Shown piece after piece: positions 3,331 to 22,382 of a DNA stretch of 22,382 nt. The notes beneath the pieces are model-generated. The model was not told the DNA's origin, did not search any database, and worked only from the letters and a program-made list of their open reading frames with translations. This DNA comes from a virus. The translations under genes and the position numbers were made by a program. The stretch spans positions 1 through 22,382 of the IMG/VR virus record IMGVR_UViG_3300029286_000261; one strand, given 5' to 3'. The first letter of the stretch is position 1. Each line of letters begins with the position of its first letter.

Positions 3331-4095
3331 TCAGAACGTAGGGACGTCTATCGCGTCTACGTGCACTCCGGCCGGCTTGGGTAAGTTCCCCGTCTGGCGC
3401 AGCGCGCTGAACAGGTCGTTCGTGTCAGATGCCAGGTGCTGGTACGTCAGGCTCATGGCCGCAGGTGCGATCACGGTGTCAGAATACAGCATCGTGTGTG
3501 CGGTCGGCACTCCGCCGGCGTACAGAGCGAGCCCAGTCACGTCCGCGACGTCGAACGCCTCGTATCGAGGCAGCGTCACGTACGTCGTCGTCGTCACGGA
3601 GACCGCATCCAGGATATTCACGTTCACCCCGAAGTACTCGTAGCACAGGTCGTCCAGGTACCCGATGGTACAGTTCGACGAGTGGGCGGACGCCAGGAAC
3701 GTGATCATCCTCCTGAAGTCGGCGTCCGAGAGCGTGCACGCCGTGAAGTCGTCGTAGAGCATGAAGTACTGGACCGATGGGTGCGTCGCGGCGTCGTAGG
3801 TGTCGAGTCCGGGATACGTGGGGACGTCGTCCGCGTACGCCGGGACCGCCATGTACGTCTTGGACAGGTCGAGCGTGTAGTAGTAGCGGGTGACTCCCCG
3901 GAGTTCGCCCAGGACGTCTAGCTGCGCTCCGATGGCGGTGTCGACGTCGAAGCCGTCCCTGACCTGCGCGAAGATGGAGTCGGCGACCATGGCCCGCACG
4001 AAGGCCCTGACCGTGCCCGTGGCCTTCGGCTTCCTGTAGTACTGGGCTACCAGGAGCTCGGCGTAGTACGTCAACAGGGTGTCCGTGTCGCTCAT
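3331..4095 (-). CDS. DUF2612-like baseplate protein (gpI-like position)
   Basis: 254 residues, starting in an ATGA overlap with the upstream gpJ-like gene. The N-terminus (YYAELLVAQYYRKPKATGTV) and the following helical stretch with a GAQLDVLGELRGV segment fit the DUF2612 family. That family follows the baseplate J gene in many myophages and takes the place of P2 gpI, linking the wedge to fibres. The C-terminal half is rich in Tyr, Thr and Val and is probably beta-structured. Its place between the gpJ-like gene and the fibre genes supports the call. Confidence 0.7.
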   Translation of the reverse strand: MSDTDTLLTYYAELLVAQYYRKPKATGTVRAFVRAMVADSIFAQVRDGFDVDTAIGAQLDVLGELRGVTRYYYTLDLSKTYMAVPAYADDVPTYPGLDTYDAATHPSVQYFMLYDDFTACTLSDADFRRMITFLASAHSSNCTIGYLDDLCYEYFGVNVNILDAVSVTTTTYVTLPRYEAFDVADVTGLALYAGGVPTAHTMLYSDTVIAPAAMSLTYQHLASDTNDLFSALRQTGNLPKPAGVHVDAIDVPTF

Positions 4096-5267
4096 GTTAT
4101 GTCTATGTCGGCCGCGGCCAAGGTGAAGTAGTACTGCTGGTCGGTCGTGCCGACCGTGTCCGTGTAGGCCATGCCGTCGGTGGAGACGCCGAGCGACACC
4201 AGGATGGCCCGAGACTCGATAGCCTGCATCGCGACCACGATGTCCCCGATGGTGGCCAGCTGGTTCAACTTCCAGAAGGTGAGCATCGCCGCAGCCAGCT
4301 CCTGCGCGATCAGGGCGTCGTCGAACGTGATCCCCTGGACGGACGACACCATGCCGAACTGGACATACAGCCTCTGCGCGATCCCGACGTCCCAGTACAT
4401 CGTCGCTGACTGTCCGTTGGGCTTGGTGACGACGGCGCTCTCGCTCCCGAACAGGCCGCAGCCTGCCGACTTCTTGGCGTAAATCGCCGCCGCAATCACG
4501 GCGTCAGTCGCGCTGCCGACTACGATGGGCCATATGCTGTGGGCCGGTACGCTGCCGACCGGAGCATTCGTGTCATTCTCCACGACCAGGGCATCTGAGA
4601 CGTCCTCTAGGTCCAGGAGCGCCGCCTCGACAGCGTCTGCGGGCCCAGTCGCCGCGAGCTTGAACATCTTGGCGTGCCTGACCCGGAGCTCGGAGTCGGT
4701 CTCCTCGAGCTGACCCACGACGGAGCCGGCCGTTGTTGGGTTGTTCACGTCGGTGATCCCCAGGGTGGGCGTGTTCTGCTGGGTGATCGTGTTTGCGATC
4801 GGCGTGATCGCGCCCATCTCGTCGCACTGGAACACGAGGGCCTGGACCCCCGCGGTCGCGAATGCGTAGCTCGAGACTAGGGTCCACACGTTGTTGGAGT
4901 CCCTGACTGAGAACGCCACGGCCGCGGTCTGGTCCAGCCCCGGCAGGGTCTGCGCCCTGTCGGAGGTGACACTGACCGACGTCGTGGTGTACACGCCCGG
5001 TCGCAGAGTCAGGCCGTTGAGGGCCACAAGCCTGTGGAGGGAGATCCCGACCGCGCTGTCGACGGAGAACATGTTGTAGATGCTGACGAGCAGGTCGAGG
5101 ATGTCCTGGCTAGACTGCACGTAGATGCCGATCATCTGGCCGTCGGGAGAGTTCGACGATAGGTCGACGTCGCTGCCGAACACGGCCTGCAGGTCCGCCT
5201 CGATCTGCGTGGTCTGCTCGTCGGTGGTGGCGGTGGCCAGGCCGTCGCCGTCCAGGGTGTTAGGCAT
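4092..5267 (-). CDS. Baseplate J-like wedge protein
   Basis: 391 residues with the ATG at 5267, chosen because AGGAG lies upstream and the start overlaps the gp25-like stop by eight bases (ATGCCTAA). The longer frame back to 5345 only reads into the neighbouring gene. Features of the gpJ/gp47 family: an N-terminal segment SSNSPDGQMIGI followed by helical QDILDLLVSIYN, a LRPGVYTT region, a central acidic stretch with EETDSELRVRHAK, and a mixed C-terminal domain. In the family the protein forms the wedge that triggers sheath contraction. It lies downstream of gp25-like and upstream of DUF2612, the usual order. Confidence 0.82.
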   Translation of the reverse strand: MPNTLDGDGLATATTDEQTTQIEADLQAVFGSDVDLSSNSPDGQMIGIYVQSSQDILDLLVSIYNMFSVDSAVGISLHRLVALNGLTLRPGVYTTTSVSVTSDRAQTLPGLDQTAAVAFSVRDSNNVWTLVSSYAFATAGVQALVFQCDEMGAITPIANTITQQNTPTLGITDVNNPTTAGSVVGQLEETDSELRVRHAKMFKLAATGPADAVEAALLDLEDVSDALVVENDTNAPVGSVPAHSIWPIVVGSATDAVIAAAIYAKKSAGCGLFGSESAVVTKPNGQSATMYWDVGIAQRLYVQFGMVSSVQGITFDDALIAQELAAAMLTFWKLNQLATIGDIVVAMQAIESRAILVSLGVSTDGMAYTDTVGTTDQQYYFTLAAADIDIT

Positions 5268-14221: not shown

Positions 14222-15352
14222 CTAGATGCTGGCCGCGTCGTCGAGGTATAACACCTCTGGGACGCGGTATGCGATCATGCCGGTGAACTGCCCGTAGCCC
14301 ACGCCGTTCCACTGGAAGTTGTTCCCGGTGGCCGGGGCGCAGATGTTCAGGTCGACTGGGATGTCCATGTGTATCGTCTCCCGGTCATCGTTGTACAGGG
14401 CGTAGCGGTTGGTGCCGTTCGTCGCCCAGTACCCGGCGTTCCTAGCCTTGTTGCCGTACGCGGTGCACATGATTTTGAAGTTCTGGCCGCAGATGCCCTT
14501 GAAGAGCTTCTCGAGCACCTCCAGCTTGGTCATGGCGATGCTGACCCCGCCGACAGCCACCAGGACGCCGAGCCCAACGAAGTCCGAGCGGGGCATGACG
14601 AACCGGGTGGGGAGCCGGGTGTCGTTGGAGTTATCCAGGTAGAGCTGGATGATCCCAGCGACGAACGCGTCGAAGTCCGCGGCGCTCATCGAAGAGATCG
14701 GCCCTCCGATGAAGGTCGTGTTGACGTTGACGGTGCTGTTGCTCAGTAGGCCGGGGAAGTTCGTCAGGTCGCTCTTGCGGCCGAGGAACCCGACCTTTTG
14801 GATGCCGAGCTGCCAGTTGCGCGTGAGGGCCTTGTACTTCGAGGCCACCACATCCCAGTTGTTGCTGGCCAGGGCCTTCTGCATCTCCGGCAGGGAGTAC
14901 ATGTAGCCTTTCGCCCACGACGCGATCTTCGCCGTCACGGGGCTCATGCCGACCTCGACGTTGCCGATCTGAGTCCGGGACGAGAGTCCCTGGATGCCCT
15001 CCTCGAAGGGGCCGGCGGCGTCGTACGTCATGTTCTGCTTGATCTCCTCCATCCACGGGCCTCGCCCCACGAGGACCGGCGCGAAGTCCGCCACGGCCTC
15101 CTCGTAGAACTTCTGCTCGATGATGTCGGCCGCGATCAGGGTCGTGGTCTGGATGGTGTACTGGTAGCCCAGGGACGACTGGTTCACGGAGCCGTTCGCG
15201 TTGCACAGCTCGCGTTCCATACCTGACTTCCAGGCGATCGGGTTCTGCGCGATCGCCAGCAGCGAGTTCAGGAGCTGCGGGTGCGCGCTATACTGCTCCA
15301 GGGTCTTGCGCTCCCCCTTGCGGAGGGAGTTCAGCAGTTCTGCGTGTCTCAT
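14222..15352 (-). CDS. Major capsid protein (DUF2184-like)
   Basis: 376 residues with a strong AAGGAGAG site before the ATG, as expected for the most abundant virion protein. Segments such as IIEQKFYEEAVADFAPVLVG, GPFEEGIQGLSSRTQIGNVE and TRNWQLGIQKVGFLGRKSDL, followed by FPGLLSNSTV, fit the DUF2184 capsid family with an HK97-type fold. Two LLNSL motifs stand near the N-terminus (Asn8-Ser9 and Asn29-Ser30) in a charged, helical leader that could be removed by the prohead protease; this is inference. The gene lies between the cement-like gene and the connector genes. Subunits should form the icosahedral shell. Confidence 0.82.
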   Translation of the reverse strand: MRHAELLNSLRKGERKTLEQYSAHPQLLNSLLAIAQNPIAWKSGMERELCNANGSVNQSSLGYQYTIQTTTLIAADIIEQKFYEEAVADFAPVLVGRGPWMEEIKQNMTYDAAGPFEEGIQGLSSRTQIGNVEVGMSPVTAKIASWAKGYMYSLPEMQKALASNNWDVVASKYKALTRNWQLGIQKVGFLGRKSDLTNFPGLLSNSTVNVNTTFIGGPISSMSAADFDAFVAGIIQLYLDNSNDTRLPTRFVMPRSDFVGLGVLVAVGGVSIAMTKLEVLEKLFKGICGQNFKIMCTAYGNKARNAGYWATNGTNRYALYNDDRETIHMDIPVDLNICAPATGNNFQWNGVGYGQFTGMIAYRVPEVLYLDDAASI

Positions 15353-15380
15353 TCTTGTTCTCTCCTTGACCTGAGGTCGC

Positions 15381-15848
15381 CTAGCTCGCCCTGAAGCCGA
15401 TCACGACTCGGCCCATGGAGTTCTGGACCACGTAGTCGATGAGCATGCCCATGACCAGGTGGGTGCCGTCAACGGCGGCGAGGAAGCCGCTGGACATGGC
15501 GACCGAGGTGCCGGGGGCGATGGTGGTGCTCCCACACTCGTAGACGACCGGGCCGCCGCTGAAGGAGACCTCGACCTGGTCGCCCTCGGAGAAGGTGGCC
15601 TTCTGGGCGGTGCGCTTCAGCACGCCGAAGGCGGCCTCGTTGTCGGCCGCGAAGACGAACTGCACGGTGCCGGCCGCGGTGACGGACGTGTCGATCTTCA
15701 CGCGGGTGCCGGCGTCGAGGCTCAGGTCACCGGCGACGGCGCCGAGCACGCCGGCGATGACCCCGGACTTCTGGATGGCCAGGTCGAGGTCACCCTTCAT
15801 CGGGCCCTGCTCGAACTGGTTGGTATAGACGGGCGGGACGGTGGACAT
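15381..15848 (-). CDS. Capsid cement/decoration-like protein
   Basis: 155 residues, with GAGAGGT before the ATG. It is almost all strand-forming and Gly/Val/Ala/Thr-rich: GVIAGVLGAVAGDLSLDAGT, TVQFVFAADNEAAFGVLKRT, GDQVEVSFSGGPVVYECGST, and a C-terminal strand set ending GRVVIGFRAS. Size, composition and position directly before the capsid gene fit the beta-barrel cement proteins that stabilise DUF2184-type shells. The exact family is not certain. It has one Asn-Ser pair (VVQNSMG), not placed like the putative cleavage motifs. Confidence 0.62.
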   Translation of the reverse strand: MSTVPPVYTNQFEQGPMKGDLDLAIQKSGVIAGVLGAVAGDLSLDAGTRVKIDTSVTAAGTVQFVFAADNEAAFGVLKRTAQKATFSEGDQVEVSFSGGPVVYECGSTTIAPGTSVAMSSGFLAAVDGTHLVMGMLIDYVVQNSMGRVVIGFRAS

Positions 15849-15921
15849 AGTTCGCTACCTCTCGATTGCGGATTGGTGCGTCTGCGCTGTGGTACGGCTC
15901 TTCAGCGACGGGTGCATGGCT

Positions 15922-16431
15922 TTACCTTCTCGAGCCGTAGCGCGCCCGTCCGAGATTCTCCTTGTCGTCTGGCGAGTGCACGTCGGTGAGGGCCACCAGG
16001 ACCCCCTCGTCGCGCAGCTGCGCCACCTGCTTCAGGTTGTTGAAGTGCGTCGCCCTGAGCTCCCTGCGGGAGTTGTCGAGCTCCAGCTGCTTGGCAGCCA
16101 GGGAGTTCCTCAGGGTTTCGGTCTTAGCCTCCGCGGCCTTGGCCAGATCCGCGTTCTTCTCCGCCACCCACTCCTTCATGGGCTGCGGGGCGGAGTTGTC
16201 GTACGGGTGTCTCATCTCCTTCTCGTAGTCGAGCTGGCAGGACTTGCACACGACCCCGTCGACCTTCGACAGGACCGCCCCGTCTCCGGCCGGCTCCCTG
16301 CCGCACGCGTCGCACTTCTTCGAAGCGTCAGTTAGTAGGTTCTTTTTCTCCTCGGCCTCCATCGCATTTACCAGCTCGCGGCGCCTGTCGGCCGGGACCA
16401 TCGCCAGCAGCATCTTCAGGATCTTGTCCAT
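15922..16431 (-). CDS. Zinc-ribbon and helix protein, candidate scaffold/core protein
   Basis: 169 residues from the ATG at 16431, with GGAGGTGA ahead and two bases after the protease stop; the longer frame to 16767 is a shadow. Residues 1-31 (MDKILKMLLAMVP...RRELVNAMEAEEKK) closely resemble residues 195-223 of the preceding protease protein, so this module is duplicated. Cys40, Cys43, Cys62 and Cys65 form a CxxC...CxxC zinc ribbon. Residues 85-145 are a long charged helix, probably a coiled coil. Five Asn-(Ser/Ala) pairs occur (22, 79, 93, 109, 120). The position between protease and shell genes is where scaffolds usually lie. Role inferred. Confidence 0.5.
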   Translation of the reverse strand: MDKILKMLLAMVPADRRRELVNAMEAEEKKNLLTDASKKCDACGREPAGDGAVLSKVDGVVCKSCQLDYEKEMRHPYDNSAPQPMKEWVAEKNADLAKAAEAKTETLRNSLAAKQLELDNSRRELRATHFNNLKQVAQLRDEGVLVALTDVHSPDDKENLGRARYGSRR

Positions 16432-16433
16432 GG

Positions 16434-18416
16434 TCACCTCACCTCCAGCGCCCTGCGGTACTCCGGCGGCAGCTCGTCGAAGCTCCTGCGCTCCCAGACC
16501 TGGAGCGGCGAGTCGCCTGGGCGCACCCGGACCAGGGAGTTCAGCAGGGCGGGCCTGAGCTTCCTGGAAGTGGAGTCCCATCTCCGCCGGGCCGCGACGG
16601 ACTTGTCGGCGGTGACGGCGTTCCTGTGCTCCAGCACGCAGAAACAGTCGCTCTCTTGGCAGCCAAACTCGTCGTGCCTTCCCGAGCCGTGCCCACACAC
16701 GACGCAGCTGGTGCTCAGCGAGTTGCCGAGCTCGGAGGCCGGGGCCACCGCGCCGCACGAGCGGCATGTCGCGAAGCCGCTGGCGACCGAGACCTCACCG
16801 CAGCAGGAAGGGCAGACGCCGAGTGAGTTCTTCATCAAGGTTGGCTCCTTCTTGTCCGACTCCGCGTTCTTGATTGGCTCGTGAGCCTTCCCGAGGTCGT
16901 TCCTGGCCTCGAAGTCCCCGATCGCGTCTGACTCGGTCTGGAAGTAGTGCCCGCTCGTGCACCCCCCAGACTTCTTCTCCCTGGTCCACGTGGCGAACGG
17001 GGAGGCGCCCTGCTTGATGTCCCCCACCAGGATGATCTCAAACTCCTGGTCCTTCGGGAGCTGCTTGACCCTGAGGAGTTTACCCCCCATCGGGATCGGC
17101 GACGAGTTCTTCGCCGGGGTAGGCTCCTTCGCGGGCTCCGAGTTCTTCGCCGGGACGGGCTCCTTCTCGGGCTCCGAGTTCTTCGCCGGAACAGGCTCCT
17201 TCACGGGCTCCGCGTTCTTCGCCGGGACAGGCTCCTTCGCGGGCTCCGAGTTCTTCGCGGCGACACTCGACGGCTGCGCGACGGAGATCCCAGCCGCAGC
17301 CAGCGACGGCTCCAGCACGACGTCGCCGCCTCCCAGCGGGAGCTTCGGCGCGTCGCCGTGCGGGGCGTCCTCGGTCACCTTCCTCTGCGTGGGGCCGTCG
17401 GGAGCGGGAGCCTGCTCGGCATTCTTCGCGGGAGGCGGCAGGTCCGCGCTGGTGATCTCCTTCGGGGCGGACGCGGGAGCCGGCTCAGGCTCCGCGTTCT
17501 TGGCTGGAGCTGGGACCGGCGCGTCCGGGGAGGGCTTGGCCGCGGCGCTCGCGGGGGCAGGCGCGTCAGGGGTCGGCTTGGGCTCCGGGGAGGCGTTCTC
17601 GCCCGGGAGATCACCCACGTGCCTGCTGAGTTCCTTCTCGAGCGCGTCGGCCTCGAGAGCTAGCTTCACTCTCTCCTCGGGAGTCGCGGTCTTGATCTTC
17701 TCGCGCAGGTCGGAGAGCTGGGAGATCTTGATCGCATCACTCTCGTTCTTCTCCTCCAACTCCATCGCGTTCACCAGCTCCCTGAGCTTGACCAGCGGCA
17801 CGACCGACAGCATCGCCCTGATGACTCTGTCCACGATCCCTCCGTTCTTCGAGTTGTAGATCTCCGCGCCGTTGTAGCGCGGGTTCGGGACGACGGCGAC
17901 GTGCGTGTACCTGCCGTCCAGGATGACGGCGTCGTACTTGCTATTGTGCCACAGGCCTGGCTCGTCCTTCGTCTCCGTCGGGAAGTAGGCGCAGGAGAGC
18001 TGGTAGCCCTCGTCGATCTTGCGCTTGGTGTCCTCGTCCCAGACCATGAACTCCACGTCCTCCCATCCGCACTGGGGGTCGGGGTTCACGAAGCTCCTGA
18101 CGACCACGCCGTCGGCCTCGCCGTCACGGAAGTCGGAGGGATTGACCTTGCGGTGGTCGTACCCCCCCGAGCGGCCGACGAGCGGGATCCCCTCGGCGGT
18201 GGGGCGCATCTTGGCGATCGCCTCCCAGGTGAGCAGGAATGTCGTCTGCTTCCCCGTCGGCTTCCCGTCGCCGTCGGTGTCGTCGTAGGTCACGATGCCG
18301 GGCTCCAGGTGGTGACCGACGCGGAGCTTCGCCCACTCGGGGTCGGAGGCGGTGTAGGCGTCGACGCTCCGGCGTAGAGGAGAGTTGAGGAGGACCTGCG
18401 TCAGTCGCTTGGACAT
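16434..18416 (-). CDS. DUF2213-like prohead protease fused to scaffold-like region
   Basis: 660 residues from the ATG at 18416, chosen because GGAGGAGCT lies just upstream; an ATG at 18440 would put that site inside the gene. Residues 1-190 fit the DUF2213 capsid protease family: YDHRKVNP (His88), GYQLSCAY (Ser141) and YTHVAVVPNPRYNG (His172), a His-Ser-His set like herpes-type assemblins. Then come a helix module (195-223), a charged coiled coil (about 224-268) and a Pro/Ala/Lys/Glu linker with 12-residue repeats (386-439). A globular part follows (about 445-505), then two zinc modules (Cys535...Cys554; Cys571...Cys593). Seventeen Asn-(Ser/Ala) pairs are scattered through it. The fusion suggests a protease that enters the prohead with its own scaffold and may cut it up. 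Confidence 0.72.
   Translation of the reverse strand: MSKRLTQVLLNSPLRRSVDAYTASDPEWAKLRVGHHLEPGIVTYDDTDGDGKPTGKQTTFLLTWEAIAKMRPTAEGIPLVGRSGGYDHRKVNPSDFRDGEADGVVVRSFVNPDPQCGWEDVEFMVWDEDTKRKIDEGYQLSCAYFPTETKDEPGLWHNSKYDAVILDGRYTHVAVVPNPRYNGAEIYNSKNGGIVDRVIRAMLSVVPLVKLRELVNAMELEEKNESDAIKISQLSDLREKIKTATPEERVKLALEADALEKELSRHVGDLPGENASPEPKPTPDAPAPASAAAKPSPDAPVPAPAKNAEPEPAPASAPKEITSADLPPPAKNAEQAPAPDGPTQRKVTEDAPHGDAPKLPLGGGDVVLEPSLAAAGISVAQPSSVAAKNSEPAKEPVPAKNAEPVKEPVPAKNSEPEKEPVPAKNSEPAKEPTPAKNSSPIPMGGKLLRVKQLPKDQEFEIILVGDIKQGASPFATWTREKKSGGCTSGHYFQTESDAIGDFEARNDLGKAHEPIKNAESDKKEPTLMKNSLGVCPSCCGEVSVASGFATCRSCGAVAPASELGNSLSTSCVVCGHGSGRHDEFGCQESDCFCVLEHRNAVTADKSVAARRRWDSTSRKLRPALLNSLVRVRPGDSPLQVWERRSFDELPPEYRRALEVR
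17100..17261 (-). repeat. 36-bp tandem repeats encoding AKN(S/A)EPxKEPVP units
   Basis: Four full copies and a fraction of a 12-residue unit in the protease-scaffold protein, with Asn at residues 389, 401, 413, 425 and 437, exactly twelve apart. Each unit holds one AKN(S/A) motif in a flexible Pro/Lys/Glu context. Related single units lie earlier at Asn307 and Asn332. Confidence 0.9.
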
Positions 18417-18418
18417 GA

Positions 18419-21400
18419 TCAGCTCCTCCGGCTGCGGCACTTCCTGCAGAGTTCCTGCTCGTTCTCGTCTTCTTCAGGGATCTCCTCGTTGCACTCGCAG
18501 CACCGGTCGCCGGAGTTCTCCTTCGACCTGTACCTGGAGTTCCCGATGGCCTCGCGGTCGCCAGGGAGGGAGACGGAGTCCCGCAGGATCGGGCCCTTTC
18601 GCCTCTCCATCTCCGCCCTGATGTCAGCCTCGCAGTCGGCGCAGTAGTCCCCGTCGCTGGGTACCACCTTCTTCTTGCACTTGTGGCAGAGGTTGCCGAT
18701 GAGGCCCTGCTCGTTCCTCCTCTCCGCCCTCGCGTCCCGGCGGGCCACCTCGGGGTCGTTGTGCGACTGTGGTACCTTGCTGTACGGGGTCGGCCTGAAC
18801 TTCGGGTCGTCGAGGGCGGAGTTGCCCAGCTGGTCAGCTGGTATCCCATATTTCCTGAGCGCAGCCCTGACCACGGGTTCTGAGAATCCAGCCGCCAGGG
18901 CCCTCTTACCGAGTTCGCCGGACGCTTCAGGGGTCGTGTAGTTCTTCTCCAGCCACTGCGTGATCTTGGTGAGGTCAAAGTCGGTGGCGTTGCTCTTTGC
19001 CGCGTAGTCGGGGCACAGCATCCCCGGGCCGGACTCGACCCAGTTGCCGGCCTTGCCGCAGGACACGCACTTACTGAGGGCGTTGCTCAGGAACAACCCA
19101 GCACGACCGATCAGGGAACCCCTCACAGCCTTGGGTAAGGTGCCCCAGCTGCCATGCGCGTATCCGTGACCATCCTCGTCGATCTCCTTCAGCCACTCCC
19201 GGCGATCGGTCAAGGACGACTTCTCCCATTGCTTCTGGAGTTCTTCGGCATCGGTGGCATTCTGCTTCGGCGCGACCAGAGCCTTCTCGTAGCACCCATA
19301 GCAGATCCCCCTCGAGGTCTTGACGTGCTCTCGCTTGCAGGCCGAGTACGTGCCGTCGGTGTCGAGATTGGCTCCCCAGGCGGCGTTCGCCCGCACCCCG
19401 AGCACGTCGTCGACCGCCTCCTCGTCCGCCTTCCCCCTGTGGTGGTCGCGCACGATCTCCCAGACCTGCTTCGATGGGAACTCAGGGTGCTCGGAGAACT
19501 CCTTCTTGAACTCGTCGGCGAGGGAGACCATGAGGTCGTTCTTCAGGGTGCTGTTCCCGAGCACCCGCACCGGCTTCCTGGAGGCGTACTCCACGACGCG
19601 CACGCGGCCCATCTTGGACCCCGGGGTCCTCTCGGCGTCGATCTTCTTGGCCTCCGCCTCTGCCTCGGCGAGCGTCAGCGGCGACGACGCGTCGTCCGTC
19701 CTCCAGTTGCCGTTCCACTCCCACTCGACGTCGTACCCGGGCTCGGAGTTCTTCCGCTCCTCCCGCCGCCTGAACTCGCCCTCGACACAGCCGCACCCCT
19801 GCTCGTCGCAGCCGAACTCGGAGTGTCTGGACTGGTCGTGGGCGCAGGCGGGGCAGACAGAGTTGAGTTTCAGCTTCACGGGCTGAGGATTCGCGAGCTT
19901 AAAGGCGGCGCACGAGCACGTGTTGCACGGGGCGAAGGTCTCGTCGACCTCGAACTGGTGTCCACTCTCGTCGTGGCCGCACTCGCACCACGGGCCGGAG
20001 TTCTCCAGTCCAGCCGCGTGGTCTCCCTGCAGCTTCAGGCCGCAGGCCTGGCAGGTCATCTCCGGCAGGGCGGCGTCTGGCGCCTCGAGCATCTCGCCGC
20101 AGCACTCGGGGCAGATCCCAGAGGAGTTCTTCGCCTCGCACAGCGGCTTACCGTCTTCTAGGATATGCTCAGAAGACTTGCGGTCGAACGAGTCAACATC
20201 GCGAAATTGCCGGCGCTCAGCGTACTTCTCGGCACATCTCGGACAGGTACCGAAGGAGTTCGAATTTACGGGATCCCCGGACCGGATGATGATCTGGAGC
20301 TTGGCGATATCCTCGGGGGACAGGTCCTGTGGGTCCATCGCCTCGACGGCGCGCTTCCCGTCTGAGTTGCCGGCATCCAGCACCACTTGCAGCGCCTCCC
20401 TGTACAGCTTGGAATCTGGTCGCCCGTTGGCGTTCTCGTTCGGTGGCAGGACGGTGTCCTTGTTGTCGTGGCCACACTTGGGACAGAGGTACGGGTACTC
20501 CTTGGTGAACTCCGACGCGCCGCACTTGTCGCACTTCTTGCCGGTCGGGTCAGTGGCGTTATCCATGTCTTCAGCTCCCGGGATACCGTGCAGGCGCGCG
20601 TAGCATGAGTCGTGGAACGACTTCCCGCCGTCATACCCGATGCGCCCCTTGCCCTCCGGTATCGGCTTCCCGCACTCGTCGCACTTCTTGCCGGTCGGGT
20701 CGGCGGAGTTGGAGAGGGAGTTGCTGAATATGAACTTGCGACAGGAACACGATGAGCACGCCCCCGTCCCGTCACGATGTGACGTTGCTGAGTGATTGCA
20801 GGCGTTGTTGGCGCAGTCCTCAGGAATGCGGGCGTTAGAGTTTTCCATGCATTTCACCCACCATCCCGGATTCCCAATCGGATACTCATCCTCTTCGACA
20901 GCCTTGACTTGCCGCCCCCTCCACGCAAAGAGTCCTCCCTTCTTGCACCCGGGGCAGTTCGCGTCGACAGTCTTCTTGGAGATGAATACCTGGTCGCCTT
21001 TGACGAATCCATCATGGTCATCATTCTTGAAATCAGCCATGTTCTTCCTCTCTCTGTACATCGAGTAGGCGACGGCGGCACGCTGCTTGTGGTCAGGGTA
21101 GTCCCGGAGGGCCTCCGCGGAGCCCATGAAGCGGGAGACGTAGTCGGACTGGGACTCTGAGGAGCGGGGCGAGGGGTTGGAGAGCTCGGAGTTGTCGATC
21201 GAGATCGCCCCCGGCTCCGCCGCAGTCTTCTTCAGGTCCTCCCACGCCGCCAGGCGAGCCCTGCACGCCGGGTTGGAGCACTGCCGGTAGTGGGCCAGGT
21301 GCTCCTTCAGCTTCCCGGTGCGCACGTAGTCGCAGGGCATCCTCTCGCCGGCGTTCTCCGCGGAGTTTGCCGGGCTGCTCCAGCCCTCGCGCCTATCCTG

Positions 21401-22382
21401 GTCGTCGCGCGCCCTGAAGCGGTGGTCGTAGTCAGCCTGGGACTCTGAGGAGCGCGGAGACGGGTTGGAGAGTTCAGAAGAATTAAACATGAGTCGGATC
21501 TTGGATTTCTCGAACTCCGGAATCAAGGCCCATCCCTGGTGGAGGTGCAGAGGTAGGCCGGCCTTCTCCAAAATCGCGTCTCGCTCGTCATAGGATAGCC
21601 TCGACCATGTGTCTTTGATATCCTGCTCAGACGCGTTTTGCAAGTACCCCTCCAACCGGTTGCTCGCCAAGTACCCCTTCTTAAATTCGTCGAGCGTCAT
21701 CTCGTCCATGGACCCGAAGCCGAAGTCCGGGCCGTGATCCCGGTACACCTGCTCCGCCGCCTCGGCGTCCTGGAACCCGAGCATCACCTTATCCTCGTCG
21801 TAGCTCCCGTCGCGGCGGAGCTGGTGGACGACGTAGACCTTCAGGTCCTGGGACTCCGTCGGCCCCAGGTAATAGTCGACCGCGTCTCCATCTGCACCCT
21901 CGGTCATGGAGACCTCGCCGTAGGGGTGTTCGTATGCGTGCGACCAGCTGATTCCCTGGTCGTCTACCCCAGACTTGGTCTCCCCCACCTCGACCTCCAC
22001 GCGCACCGGCATGCCTAGGAACGTCGTCGGGCGCGCCAGGTGCTGGTCAAGAGAGGAGTTCGACTGCTCCAGGTCGACGAGCTTCCCGCCGTTGTGGTCG
22101 AGCAGCGCTCGGCTGACGTCCGCGGGGAGCTCCTCGAATTTCTTGCTGACGAGGGCCGGAGCCTTCTTGACGACTCCCACTGCCTCCAGGAACTTGGCGC
22201 GGTCGGCCTCGGTCCCGGTGTCCCACTTGCCCGCCATGCTCGTCGGGGTCGCGTTCTTCAGGATCCCCCGGTCCTTGGCCACGCGGACGAGGTAGCCCAC
22301 GTGCGACGAGTTGCGGAGGTCAAGGGACCCCAGCAGGTCGCAGGCGGCGGCGATCTCGGTGAGGCGCTCGTGACTGTATCTC
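18419..22382 (-). CDS. Giant modular head protein with InPase-like domain and many zinc knuckles, partial (N-terminus beyond window)
   Basis: The frame is open to the window edge; 26 codons lie before the GTG at 22300, including an LRNSSH motif, so that GTG is probably internal. Numbering from it (1,293 residues): residues 82-215 fit the phage inorganic-pyrophosphatase-like (InPase) domain of polyvalent proteins, with HPYG, EGADGDAVDYYLGP, VHQ and DEDKVMLGF. Residues 274-295 and 371-391 are repeats, the second running into an RFMG...HKQRAAVAYS element. About eleven Cys-rich modules follow, among them 496-520, 540-566, 590-609, 686-753, 772-797, 816-838, 988-1003, 1078-1096, 1205-1223 and 1267-1288, split by small helical segments. 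About 28 Asn-(Ser/Ala) pairs tend to fall between modules. Its place before the protease suggests a minor head (MuF-like) or internal, ejected protein. The function of the zinc modules is unknown. Confidence 0.62.
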   Translation of the reverse strand, partial: RYSHERLTEIAAACDLLGSLDLRNSSHVGYLVRVAKDRGILKNATPTSMAGKWDTGTEADRAKFLEAVGVVKKAPALVSKKFEELPADVSRALLDHNGGKLVDLEQSNSSLDQHLARPTTFLGMPVRVEVEVGETKSGVDDQGISWSHAYEHPYGEVSMTEGADGDAVDYYLGPTESQDLKVYVVHQLRRDGSYDEDKVMLGFQDAEAAEQVYRDHGPDFGFGSMDEMTLDEFKKGYLASNRLEGYLQNASEQDIKDTWSRLSYDERDAILEKAGLPLHLHQGWALIPEFEKSKIRLMFNSSELSNPSPRSSESQADYDHRFRARDDQDRREGWSSPANSAENAGERMPCDYVRTGKLKEHLAHYRQCSNPACRARLAAWEDLKKTAAEPGAISIDNSELSNPSPRSSESQSDYVSRFMGSAEALRDYPDHKQRAAVAYSMYRERKNMADFKNDDHDGFVKGDQVFISKKTVDANCPGCKKGGLFAWRGRQVKAVEEDEYPIGNPGWWVKCMENSNARIPEDCANNACNHSATSHRDGTGACSSCSCRKFIFSNSLSNSADPTGKKCDECGKPIPEGKGRIGYDGGKSFHDSCYARLHGIPGAEDMDNATDPTGKKCDKCGASEFTKEYPYLCPKCGHDNKDTVLPPNENANGRPDSKLYREALQVVLDAGNSDGKRAVEAMDPQDLSPEDIAKLQIIIRSGDPVNSNSFGTCPRCAEKYAERRQFRDVDSFDRKSSEHILEDGKPLCEAKNSSGICPECCGEMLEAPDAALPEMTCQACGLKLQGDHAAGLENSGPWCECGHDESGHQFEVDETFAPCNTCSCAAFKLANPQPVKLKLNSVCPACAHDQSRHSEFGCDEQGCGCVEGEFRRREERKNSEPGYDVEWEWNGNWRTDDASSPLTLAEAEAEAKKIDAERTPGSKMGRVRVVEYASRKPVRVLGNSTLKNDLMVSLADEFKKEFSEHPEFPSKQVWEIVRDHHRGKADEEAVDDVLGVRANAAWGANLDTDGTYSACKREHVKTSRGICYGCYEKALVAPKQNATDAEELQKQWEKSSLTDRREWLKEIDEDGHGYAHGSWGTLPKAVRGSLIGRAGLFLSNALSKCVSCGKAGNWVESGPGMLCPDYAAKSNATDFDLTKITQWLEKNYTTPEASGELGKRALAAGFSEPVVRAALRKYGIPADQLGNSALDDPKFRPTPYSKVPQSHNDPEVARRDARAERRNEQGLIGNLCHKCKKKVVPSDGDYCADCEADIRAEMERRKGPILRDSVSLPGDREAIGNSRYRSKENSGDRCCECNEEIPEEDENEQELCRKCRSRRS
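18421..18429 (-). promoter_or_regulatory. Ribosome binding site setting the protease start
   Basis: GGAGGAGCT on the minus strand, just upstream of the ATG at 18416 and overlapping the end of the preceding gene. It decides against the ATG at 18440. Confidence 0.7.
20528..20551 (-). repeat. 24-bp direct repeat in zinc module linker, copy 2
   Basis: Identical to 20678-20701, 150 bp (50 codons) away. It encodes DPTGKKCD at the start of a CxxC knuckle; both copies are preceded by an Asn-(Ser/Ala) motif (NATDPTGKKC here). Confidence 0.9.
20678..20701 (-). repeat. 24-bp direct repeat in zinc module linker, copy 1
   Basis: Encodes DPTGKKCD in NSADPTGKKCDECG. The 50-residue spacing shows that an Asn-(Ser/Ala)-bounded zinc unit was duplicated as a block. 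Confidence 0.9.
21128..21190 (-). repeat. Internal repeat SELSNPSPRSSESQ, copy 2
   Basis: Residues 371-391 of the modular protein; 17 of 21 residues equal the copy at 21416-21478, 288 bp away. Here the repeat continues into a helical element ending QRAAVAYSMYRERK, a pattern found in several phage head proteins. Each copy directly follows an Asn-Ser pair. Confidence 0.85.
21416..21478 (-). repeat. Internal repeat SELSNPSPRSSESQ, copy 1
   Basis: Residues 275-295. The first copy lacks the QRAAVAYS continuation and instead runs into a charged stretch and a Cys-rich module (MPCDYVRTGK, then CSNPAC). It looks like a truncated or replaced module. Confidence 0.85.
21656..22057 (-). other. InPase-like domain within the modular head protein
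   Basis: Residues 82-215. Visible hallmarks are GVDDQGISW, HPYGEVSMTEGADGDAVDYY, LGPTES, VYVVHQ and a DEDKVMLGFQDAEAA stretch ending in an EFKKGYL helix. This pattern is typical of the inorganic-pyrophosphatase-like domain described in phage and conjugative-element polyvalent proteins. The acidic residues of EGADGDAVD are the likely metal-binding set. Its substrate in phages is not established. Confidence 0.75.

What the first reader, a model, noticed from the sequence alone, without database searches (positions are those of the whole stretch)
14222..22382. Dense hydrophobic-x-Asn-(Ser/Ala) motif in head proteins: candidate prohead protease cleavage signal with Asn at P1
Seen: Asn-(Ser/Ala) pairs, mostly with Leu/Ile/Met/Ala two residues before Asn (LLNS, LGNS, AKNS, LMKNS, YLQNA), occur about 28 times in the modular protein, 17 times in the 660-residue protease-scaffold and 5 times in the 169-residue protein. 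Two LLNSL copies stand at the capsid protein N-terminus. By eye the tail proteins have few: about 3 in the sheath, 2 each in the tape measure and gpJ-like proteins, and 0 in the Dit-like protein. Known: the T4 prohead protease cuts after (I/L)xE, and phiKZ-type enzymes after SxE, in scaffold, internal and shell proteins. Inference: the DUF2213-like protease here recognises LxN|(S/A), a specificity I do not know to be described for this family.
Basis: partly seen in the sequence, partly recalled or inferred. Interest (0 to 1): 0.88.

Follow-up and report, generated by a model that had tools for sequence, protein, structure and literature searches.

The report
Capsid protease that cuts after asparagine
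A large group of uncultured phages, including this one, appears to mature its heads with a protease that cuts proteins after asparagine (Asn before Ser/Ala), whereas its best-known relatives cut after aspartate; this phage also puts such sites all through a long chain of small zinc-binding domains, as if that chain were cut into pieces inside the capsid.

Summary
In detail: 17 Asn-(Ser/Ala) pairs in the protease-scaffold (4.3 expected), 30 in the modular protein (9.8), and no excess in tail proteins. I collected 90 relatives by capsid similarity, not by motif. In 52 non-redundant ones the protease's scaffold tail has 274 N[SA] against 98 expected; tail genes have 866 against 870. D, E or Q before [SA] is not enriched. 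The capsid protein carries Asn at one of two fixed places before the mature shell in 55 of 57 relatives; here it is ELCN51|A52, not the two LLNSL copies. The enzyme is a DUF2213 protease with a herpes-assemblin/T4-gp21 fold and an invariant His-Ser-His. Its sister clade shows D[SA] instead, and there the cut is known: TLS capsid protein starts at ASDMGIW, directly after ...GAKND; T1 capsid is ordered from exactly D26|A27; E217/Pa193 from one residue past D64|S65. So P1 appears to be Asp in one clade and Asn in this one. I found no report of a P1-Asn prohead protease. The sites also punctuate a zinc-ribbon/pyrophosphatase protein, suggesting a head polyprotein. No Asn cleavage has been measured; everything on this clade is sequence inference.

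The parts
16434..18416 (-). DUF2213 prohead protease with long scaffold tail (660 aa from ATG). 17 N[SA] sites. Invariant H88 (18153-18155), S141 (17994-17996), H172 (17901-17903).
   Evidence: Pfam DUF2213 26.6 bits against cut-off 22; PHROG 530 head maturation protease; invariant triad in 52+20 relatives; fold match VZV protease Z 9.4, T4 gp21 Z 8.9.
17103..17498 (-). Part of the scaffold tail with repeated PAKN|(S/A)EP sites.
   Evidence: Listed by position.
15922..16434 (-). Second scaffold-like protein (about 169 aa), 5 N[SA] sites, C-terminus ARYGSRR like the protease C-termini of relatives.
   Evidence: Sequence; family C-termini RSRYGS/RARYGS.
14222..15352 (-). Major capsid protein, 376 aa, with an N-terminal propeptide.
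   Evidence: Pfam PF09950 2.6e-21, PHROG 264; 40% aligned identity to the Bdellovibrio phage phi1422 capsid protein.
15197..15202 (-). Predicted capsid maturation site N51|A52 (ELCN|ANGSV).
   Evidence: Asn at this register in 39 of 57 relatives and at a second register 8 residues on in 16 of 57; it lies between predicted helices 25-36 and 61-78.
15326..15331 (-). Extra propeptide site ELLN8|S9.
   Evidence: Kept in close relatives L007, L008, L009, L020; aligns with IRN8|S9 of phi1422.
15263..15268 (-). Extra propeptide site QLLN29|S30.
   Evidence: LLN is kept in close relatives, but P1' is Ser or Gln; aligns with LLN|A of phi1422.
18419..22381 (-). Modular 'polyvalent' protein (at least 1320 aa, 5' end may lie off the contig), 30 N[SA] sites between small Cys-rich modules.
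21677..22027 (-). Inorganic pyrophosphatase (InPase) domain of the modular protein; no N[SA] inside it, sites at residues 108 and 249 on either side.
   Evidence: Pfam PF18823 7.7e-31; site positions.
15381..15848 (-). Decoration-type protein between protease and capsid genes; no enrichment of the motif.
   Evidence: the gene at this position in relatives has ratio 0.71.

Best explanation
The 660-residue protein is a DUF2213 prohead protease fused to its own scaffold. During head assembly it cuts after Asn when the next residue is Ala or Ser: (E)-[L/M/I/R/K]-x-Asn|[Ala/Ser], not acidic at P3, often Pro at P3'. It shreds its own scaffold tail, the second scaffold-like protein and the capsid propeptide, so that the mature capsid protein begins at Ala52. 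It probably also cuts the modular protein between its small domains. The same Asn rule holds through a clade of DUF2213 phages that includes Bdellovibrio phage phi1422. The sister clade (T1, TLS, PB1-like and others) uses Asp at P1. Shown: the motif statistics, conservation of the sites, family, fold and triad of the enzyme, and Asp cleavage in the sister clade from published data. Inferred: that this enzyme cuts at the Asn sites and that the modular protein is packaged and cut.
For: Scaffold tails of 52 non-redundant relatives: N[SA] 274 against 98 expected (2.80x), first 60 capsid residues 89 against 29, tail genes 866 against 870; D/E/Q before [SA] 0.62-0.85x in scaffolds. Asn at one of two fixed registers in 55 of 57 capsid proteins, P1' Ala 35, Ser 13. 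Asn before S/A is conserved in 74% of aligned cases against 48% for other Asn (177 scaffold pairs). Flank preferences learnt from other phages separate window head N[SA] from window tail N[SA] (p 2.9e-4). By gene position the excess lies in the protease, the genes just before it and the capsid gene. Calibration in the sister clade: D[SA] 142 against 80, 0 of 2000 shuffles, N[SA] 28 against 29; ten prophages not used before, D[SA] 56 against 36, N[SA] 10 against 8.8. Measured cuts there: TLS capsid Edman ASDMGIW follows ...GAKND; T1 capsid modelled from residue 27, the only D[SA] in its first 60 residues is D26|A27; E217 and Pa193 capsid ordered from residue 66, site D64|S65. The two clades part on one branch with 100/100 support.
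Against: No mass spectrometry, Edman or structure was found for any phage of the Asn clade (no PDB sequence relative of this capsid protein or protease). Some scaffold sites are homologous between relatives, so counts are not fully independent. Six capsid proteins have D, T or V after the Asn and one has Q, so P1' is not strict. The two LLNSL copies lie inside predicted helices. Window site N51|A52 scores poorly on the flank model learnt from scaffold tails (-4.2), so capsid and scaffold sites differ beyond P3-P1'.
Confidence: 0.86

Rival explanations
1. The pairs reflect composition, low-complexity repeats or linker preference (Asn, Ser, Ala are common in disordered linkers) and have nothing to do with cleavage.
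For: Some copies lie in PAKN-type and EEKAN-type repeats; the alignment ends of modules lie near sites only a little more often than chance (47 of 136 against 32.5, about 1% of shifts).
Against: Only Asn, not Asp, Glu, Gln, Ser, Thr or Lys, is enriched before [SA] in the same tails. Flanks show position-specific preferences (P4 Glu, P3 Leu/Arg/Lys, P3' Pro) absent from tail-protein N[SA]. One site is fixed in the capsid protein of 55 of 57 relatives. The sister clade has Asp in the same role, where cuts are measured.
Confidence: 0.08
2. The protease is of ordinary acidic P1 specificity (Glu or Asp, as in T4 or T1) and the Asn sites serve something else, such as a docking motif for the scaffold or the capsid.
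For: Measured relatives cut after an acidic residue: SPN3US AxE, TLS and T1 Asp. The fixed Asn in the capsid protein could be structural.
Against: D[SA] and E[SA] are below expectation in the scaffold tails of this clade (0.65x and 0.85x), so no acidic site class stands out. The Asn site lies before the mature shell part of the capsid protein, where capsids of the sister clade start.
Confidence: 0.04
3. The bonds break without the protease, by Asn cyclisation as at intein C-termini (Asn|Ser) or by spontaneous Asn chemistry.
For: Asn followed by Ser is a C-terminal intein splice context (general knowledge).
Against: Ala at P1' is more common than Ser in scaffold tails (169 against 105). No intein domain was found in the proteins scanned. 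The sites track the protease clade: Asp replaces Asn in the sister clade.
Confidence: 0.02

Closest known systems
DUF2213 head proteases of coliphages T1 and TLS and of Pbunavirus (E217, Pa193, LMA2)
   Same: Same family, same His-Ser-His, same gene order protease-decoration-capsid, same use of small P1' residues in protease tail and capsid propeptide.
   Different: P1 is Asp there (TLS ...GAKND|ASDMGIW by Edman; T1 D26|A27; Pbunavirus D64|S65), Asn here.
T4 gp21 and the SPN3US gp245 prohead proteases
   Same: Fold of the predicted protease domain matches T4 gp21 (5jbl, Z 8.9); a phage protease that cuts head proteins at short motifs.
   Different: They cut after Glu: AxE in SPN3US (PMC10052503), (I/L)xE in T4 (general knowledge).
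Herpesvirus assemblin (VZV, PRV, HCMV proteases)
   Same: Fold (VZV 1vzv Z 9.4) and a protease-scaffold fusion that cuts itself (the latter general knowledge).
   Different: Assemblin cuts Ala|Ser (general knowledge).
Bdellovibrio phage phi1422
   Same: The only cultured phage found with this type: protease gp48 has 11 of 25 Asn before S/A, capsid gp50 has IRN|S and LLN|A at the N-terminus.
   Different: No large modular protein between the MuF-like gene and the protease; the paper that covers its genome (PMC3391216) has no mention of protease or cleavage.
Polyvalent proteins (Iyer et al. 2017, PMC5512222)
   Same: InPase domain in a multidomain protein encoded in the head gene block.
   Different: Here the domains are separated by predicted sites of the phage's own prohead protease; Asn-type sites were not mentioned in the passages found.

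Membership tests
DUF2213 (PF09979) head maturation protease | Profile match over the curated cut-off | tested here: met
   26.6 bits against 22; PHROG 530 E 1.1e-9. Weak, as the clade is distant from the model's core.
DUF2213 (PF09979) head maturation protease | Invariant catalytic His, Ser, His | tested here: met
   H88, S141, H172 invariant in 52 Asn-clade and 20 Asp-clade rows.
DUF2213 (PF09979) head maturation protease | Assemblin/gp21-type fold | tested here: met
   AF2 pLDDT 86.8; VZV protease Z 9.4, T4 gp21 Z 8.9, top rows are all viral proteases; best viral-model matches are DUF2213/prohead proteases. Foldseek alone gave no significant PDB match.
DUF2213 (PF09979) head maturation protease | Gene lies just upstream of decoration and major capsid genes | tested here: met
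   Window gene order; same in relatives.
DUF2213 (PF09979) head maturation protease | Proteolytic activity | not testable with these tools
   Needs purified enzyme or virions.
P1-Asp DUF2213 subclade (T1/TLS/PB1 type) | D[SA] sites enriched in protease tail and capsid propeptide | tested here: not met
   D[SA] 0.65x in this clade's scaffold tails, N[SA] 2.80x; separate branch, 100/100.
T4-type prohead protease specificity | Glu at P1 | tested here: not met
   E[SA] 0.85x in scaffold tails. This concerns specificity only.
Major capsid protein PF09950 (DUF2184) | Profile match over the cut-off | tested here: met
   76.6 bits against 26.8.
Polyvalent proteins | Several effector-type domains in one polypeptide, encoded with virion genes | tested here: met
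   InPase plus many Cys-rich ribbon-like modules; in L009 the protein lies between a MuF-like gene and the protease. The ribbons match Pfam zinc ribbons only weakly.
Polyvalent proteins | Delivered into the host from the virion | not testable with these tools
   Needs virion proteomics.

The most novel reading that the evidence does not exclude
A whole clade of uncultured phages uses a prohead protease strictly specific for Asn at P1, which arose by a change of the S1 pocket relative to a P1-Asp sister clade. In the window's group the enzyme also dices a head-packaged polyprotein into about thirty mini-proteins (zinc ribbons, a pyrophosphatase), which are then delivered with the DNA.
Probability: 0.42. 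Interest if true: 0.82.

Novelty: new variant of a known kind. Interest (0 to 1): 0.68.

Why it matters
The prohead proteases whose cut sites I could find recorded or recall cut after Glu, Asp, Lys or Ala. An Asn-specific enzyme would be a new specificity class, and two sister clades that differ at P1 (Asp against Asn) give a clean test of what sets the S1 pocket. The motif also lets one predict, from sequence alone, the mature capsid start and the internal head proteins of many uncultured phages. If the modular protein is really cut, it is a polyprotein that loads the capsid with many small effectors from one gene.

Tried and rejected
Close relatives by single-protein scans: none in IMG/VR; the two-row alignment with phi1422 was needed. 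Broader protease alignments were too divergent to scan with. First zinc-ribbon regex test: no difference between N[SA] and other Asn inside ribbons (p 0.86); the pattern also joined neighbouring ribbons across sites, so it is uninformative. Module-boundary test: only weak support. Search of Bacteroidota genomes with PF09979: nothing beyond the known locus. Cleavage information in the paper that covers phi1422: none. Phage 7-7-1 and the Kuttervirus papers were opened as possible precedents; neither helped. Foldseek against the PDB gave no significant match to the protease model; the second-look aligner gave the viral proteases. A few columns separate the clades completely (for example window L62 is V/I/L/M here and R/T in the Asp clade) or nearly (E38 is mostly R there), which makes them candidate S1 residues. 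That is confounded with descent and I do not claim it.
Full report
What was checked. The window is a linear 22,382-base IMG/VR fragment that encodes, on the minus strand, the head and tail genes of a contractile-tailed phage. Asn followed by Ser or Ala occurs 17 times in the protease-scaffold (4.3 expected from composition), 30 times in the modular protein (9.8), 5 times in the 169-residue protein (1.5) and 6 times in the capsid protein (4.3). The tail proteins sit at expectation. Hypergeometric p values for the protease and the modular protein are 9e-9 and 4.5e-10.

What the proteins are. The 660-residue protein matches DUF2213 (PF09979, 26.6 bits, cut-off 22) and the PHROG head maturation protease 530. 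His88, Ser141 and His172 are invariant in all aligned relatives. An AlphaFold2 model of its domain (pLDDT 86.8) aligns best with varicella-zoster protease (Z 9.4) and T4 gp21 (Z 8.9), above unrelated rows. The capsid protein is PF09950/PHROG 264. The modular protein carries an inorganic pyrophosphatase domain (PF18823) and a run of Cys-rich modules.

Relatives. The cultured phages searched contain one clear relative, Bdellovibrio phage phi1422. Its protease has 11 of 25 Asn before Ser/Ala, and its capsid protein begins MKKFVIRNSKGEKILLNAQEAK. A scan with the window+phi1422 capsid alignment gave 80 viral contigs and 10 genome loci. They were chosen by capsid similarity, so the motif did not select them.

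Statistics in the relatives. After clustering capsid proteins at 80% identity, 57 representatives remained, window included, 52 with a protease gene. In the scaffold tails N[SA] is seen 274 times against 98 expected, in the first 60 capsid residues 89 against 29, and in tail genes 866 against 870. D, E and Q before [SA] are at 0.65x, 0.85x and 0.62x in the scaffold tails. The logo is P4 Glu; P3 Leu, Arg, Lys, Met with acidic residues almost absent; P1 Asn; P1' Ala over Ser; P3' Pro; tail-protein N[SA] lack these flanks. By gene position the excess is strongest at the protease position (2.41x), then the two genes before it (about 1.6x, inflated by the modular proteins) and the capsid gene (1.43x); the decoration gene and nearly all later genes show none. 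In 177 scaffold pairs at 40-92% identity, Asn before S/A is conserved in 74% of aligned cases, other Asn in 48%. A flank model trained on other phages scores the window's head N[SA] above its tail N[SA] (p 2.9e-4).

The capsid site. Among 57 capsid proteins, 39 have Asn at the register of window N51 and 16 have it eight residues on; the two exceptions have an Asn nearby. The residue after it is Ala 35, Ser 13, Asp 3, Thr 2, Val 1, Gln 1. Typical forms are LLN|ANGDIDPSSSGYQY and VN|ALGYEINITTLT. In the AlphaFold2 capsid model the site lies in an extended stretch between propeptide helices (ending at 36) and the helix 61-78. So the most probable mature start here is Ala52.

Calibration in the sister clade. 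Eighteen phages of the main DUF2213 group (Aaphi23, Pbunavirus, Naesvirus, Jedunavirus, Chaseviridae and others) show D[SA] 142 times against 80 expected (none of 2000 shuffles as high) and N[SA] 28 against 29. I first noticed this by eye in four of them, so I tested ten further prophages from a sample of genomes of the phylum of G001 (the Paraglaciecola MAG): D[SA] 56 against 36 (none of 2000), N[SA] 10 against 8.8. Published data then fix the cut. The TLS capsid protein was Edman-sequenced as ASDMGIW (PMC11447400), and the gene reads ...MQLRGAKND|ASDMGIW, so cleavage follows Asp32. (The paper itself surmises from an alignment with Rogue1 that 45 residues are removed; the Edman sequence placed on the gene gives 32.) The T1 capsid protein was modelled from residue 27 (PMC11945409), and the only D[SA] in its first 60 residues is D26|A27. 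The E217 and Pa193 capsid proteins are ordered from residue 66 (PMC10329688, PMC11042391); the nearest D[SA] is AMD64|S65, read in the near-identical LMA2 protein, and the same AMD|S occurs in the portal N-terminus and the scaffold. The TLS case is a direct measurement; the other two are ordered-region boundaries and weaker. In a tree of 82 protease domains the Asn and Asp groups are separated by one branch with 100/100 support.

Mechanism, and what is inferred. The protease-scaffold presumably assembles inside the prohead, activates, and cuts its own tail, the second scaffold copy and the capsid propeptide at N|[SA]. No cleavage in the Asn clade has been measured. Which residues make S1 prefer Asn is open; several columns separate the clades, but descent confounds them.

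The modular protein. In the window and in close relatives L008 (33 sites, 11 expected), L009 (22, 9.4) and the fragment L020, a large protein upstream of the protease strings together Cys-rich modules with N|[SA] between many of them. In L009 it follows a MuF-like gene. No N[SA] falls inside the pyrophosphatase domain. The statistical link between module ends and sites is weak, so 'head polyprotein' is a reasonable inference, not a result. I put it at about one in two.

Novelty. Ten full-text searches of the open library gave no prohead protease with P1 Asn; subscription journals are mostly absent from it, so this is not proof of novelty. The enzyme is a member of a known family with a new specificity: a new variant of a known kind.

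Noticed in passing
window 15922-16434: Second scaffold-like gene: its start (MDKILKMLLAMVPADRRRELVNAMEAEEKK) resembles part of the protease tail (VIRAMLSVVPLVKLRELVNAMELEEKN), and its end ARYGSRR resembles protease C-termini of relatives. The scaffold seems to have been split or duplicated.
   Followed up: partly
L020:655-1428: Scaffold gene with a nearly perfect 13-residue repeat EEKKKAEEKAN|AEA, one predicted site per repeat.
   Followed up: no
L111:23-2320 (Pseudomonas phage LMA2 portal): The Pbunavirus portal C-terminus resembles the InPase domain of the window's modular protein, seen by eye. In Pa193 that part (529-765) has no density.
   Followed up: no
L116 and L119 (both in genome G001): One genome (locus title: Paraglaciecola MAG) carries both DUF2213 types, the Asp type at L116 and the Asn type at L119/L089; a natural side-by-side test.
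   Followed up: partly
L103:3471-4862 and 4065-4862 (BcepNY3): The record annotates a nested in-frame scaffold gene (13') inside the prohead protease gene, as in lambda C/Nu3; internal starts in the window's protease were not examined.
   Followed up: no
Pa193 gp24 (Asp-clade protease-scaffold; LMA2 copy at L111:4031-5464): Residues 286-326 of gp24 remain in the mature Pa193 capsid as a vertex pentamer (PMC11042391). In the LMA2 copy this stretch has no D[SA] inside; the nearest are at 255 and 379. The paper calls gp24 a putative scaffold; its protease domain was not mentioned in the passages I read.
   Followed up: partly
C-termini of the proteases (e.g. L008, L009, phi1422 gp48): A conserved GR[AS]RYGS-type C-terminus, RY being the most enriched dipeptide in the tails (51 against 5); it may be the capsid-binding end of the scaffold.
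   Followed up: no
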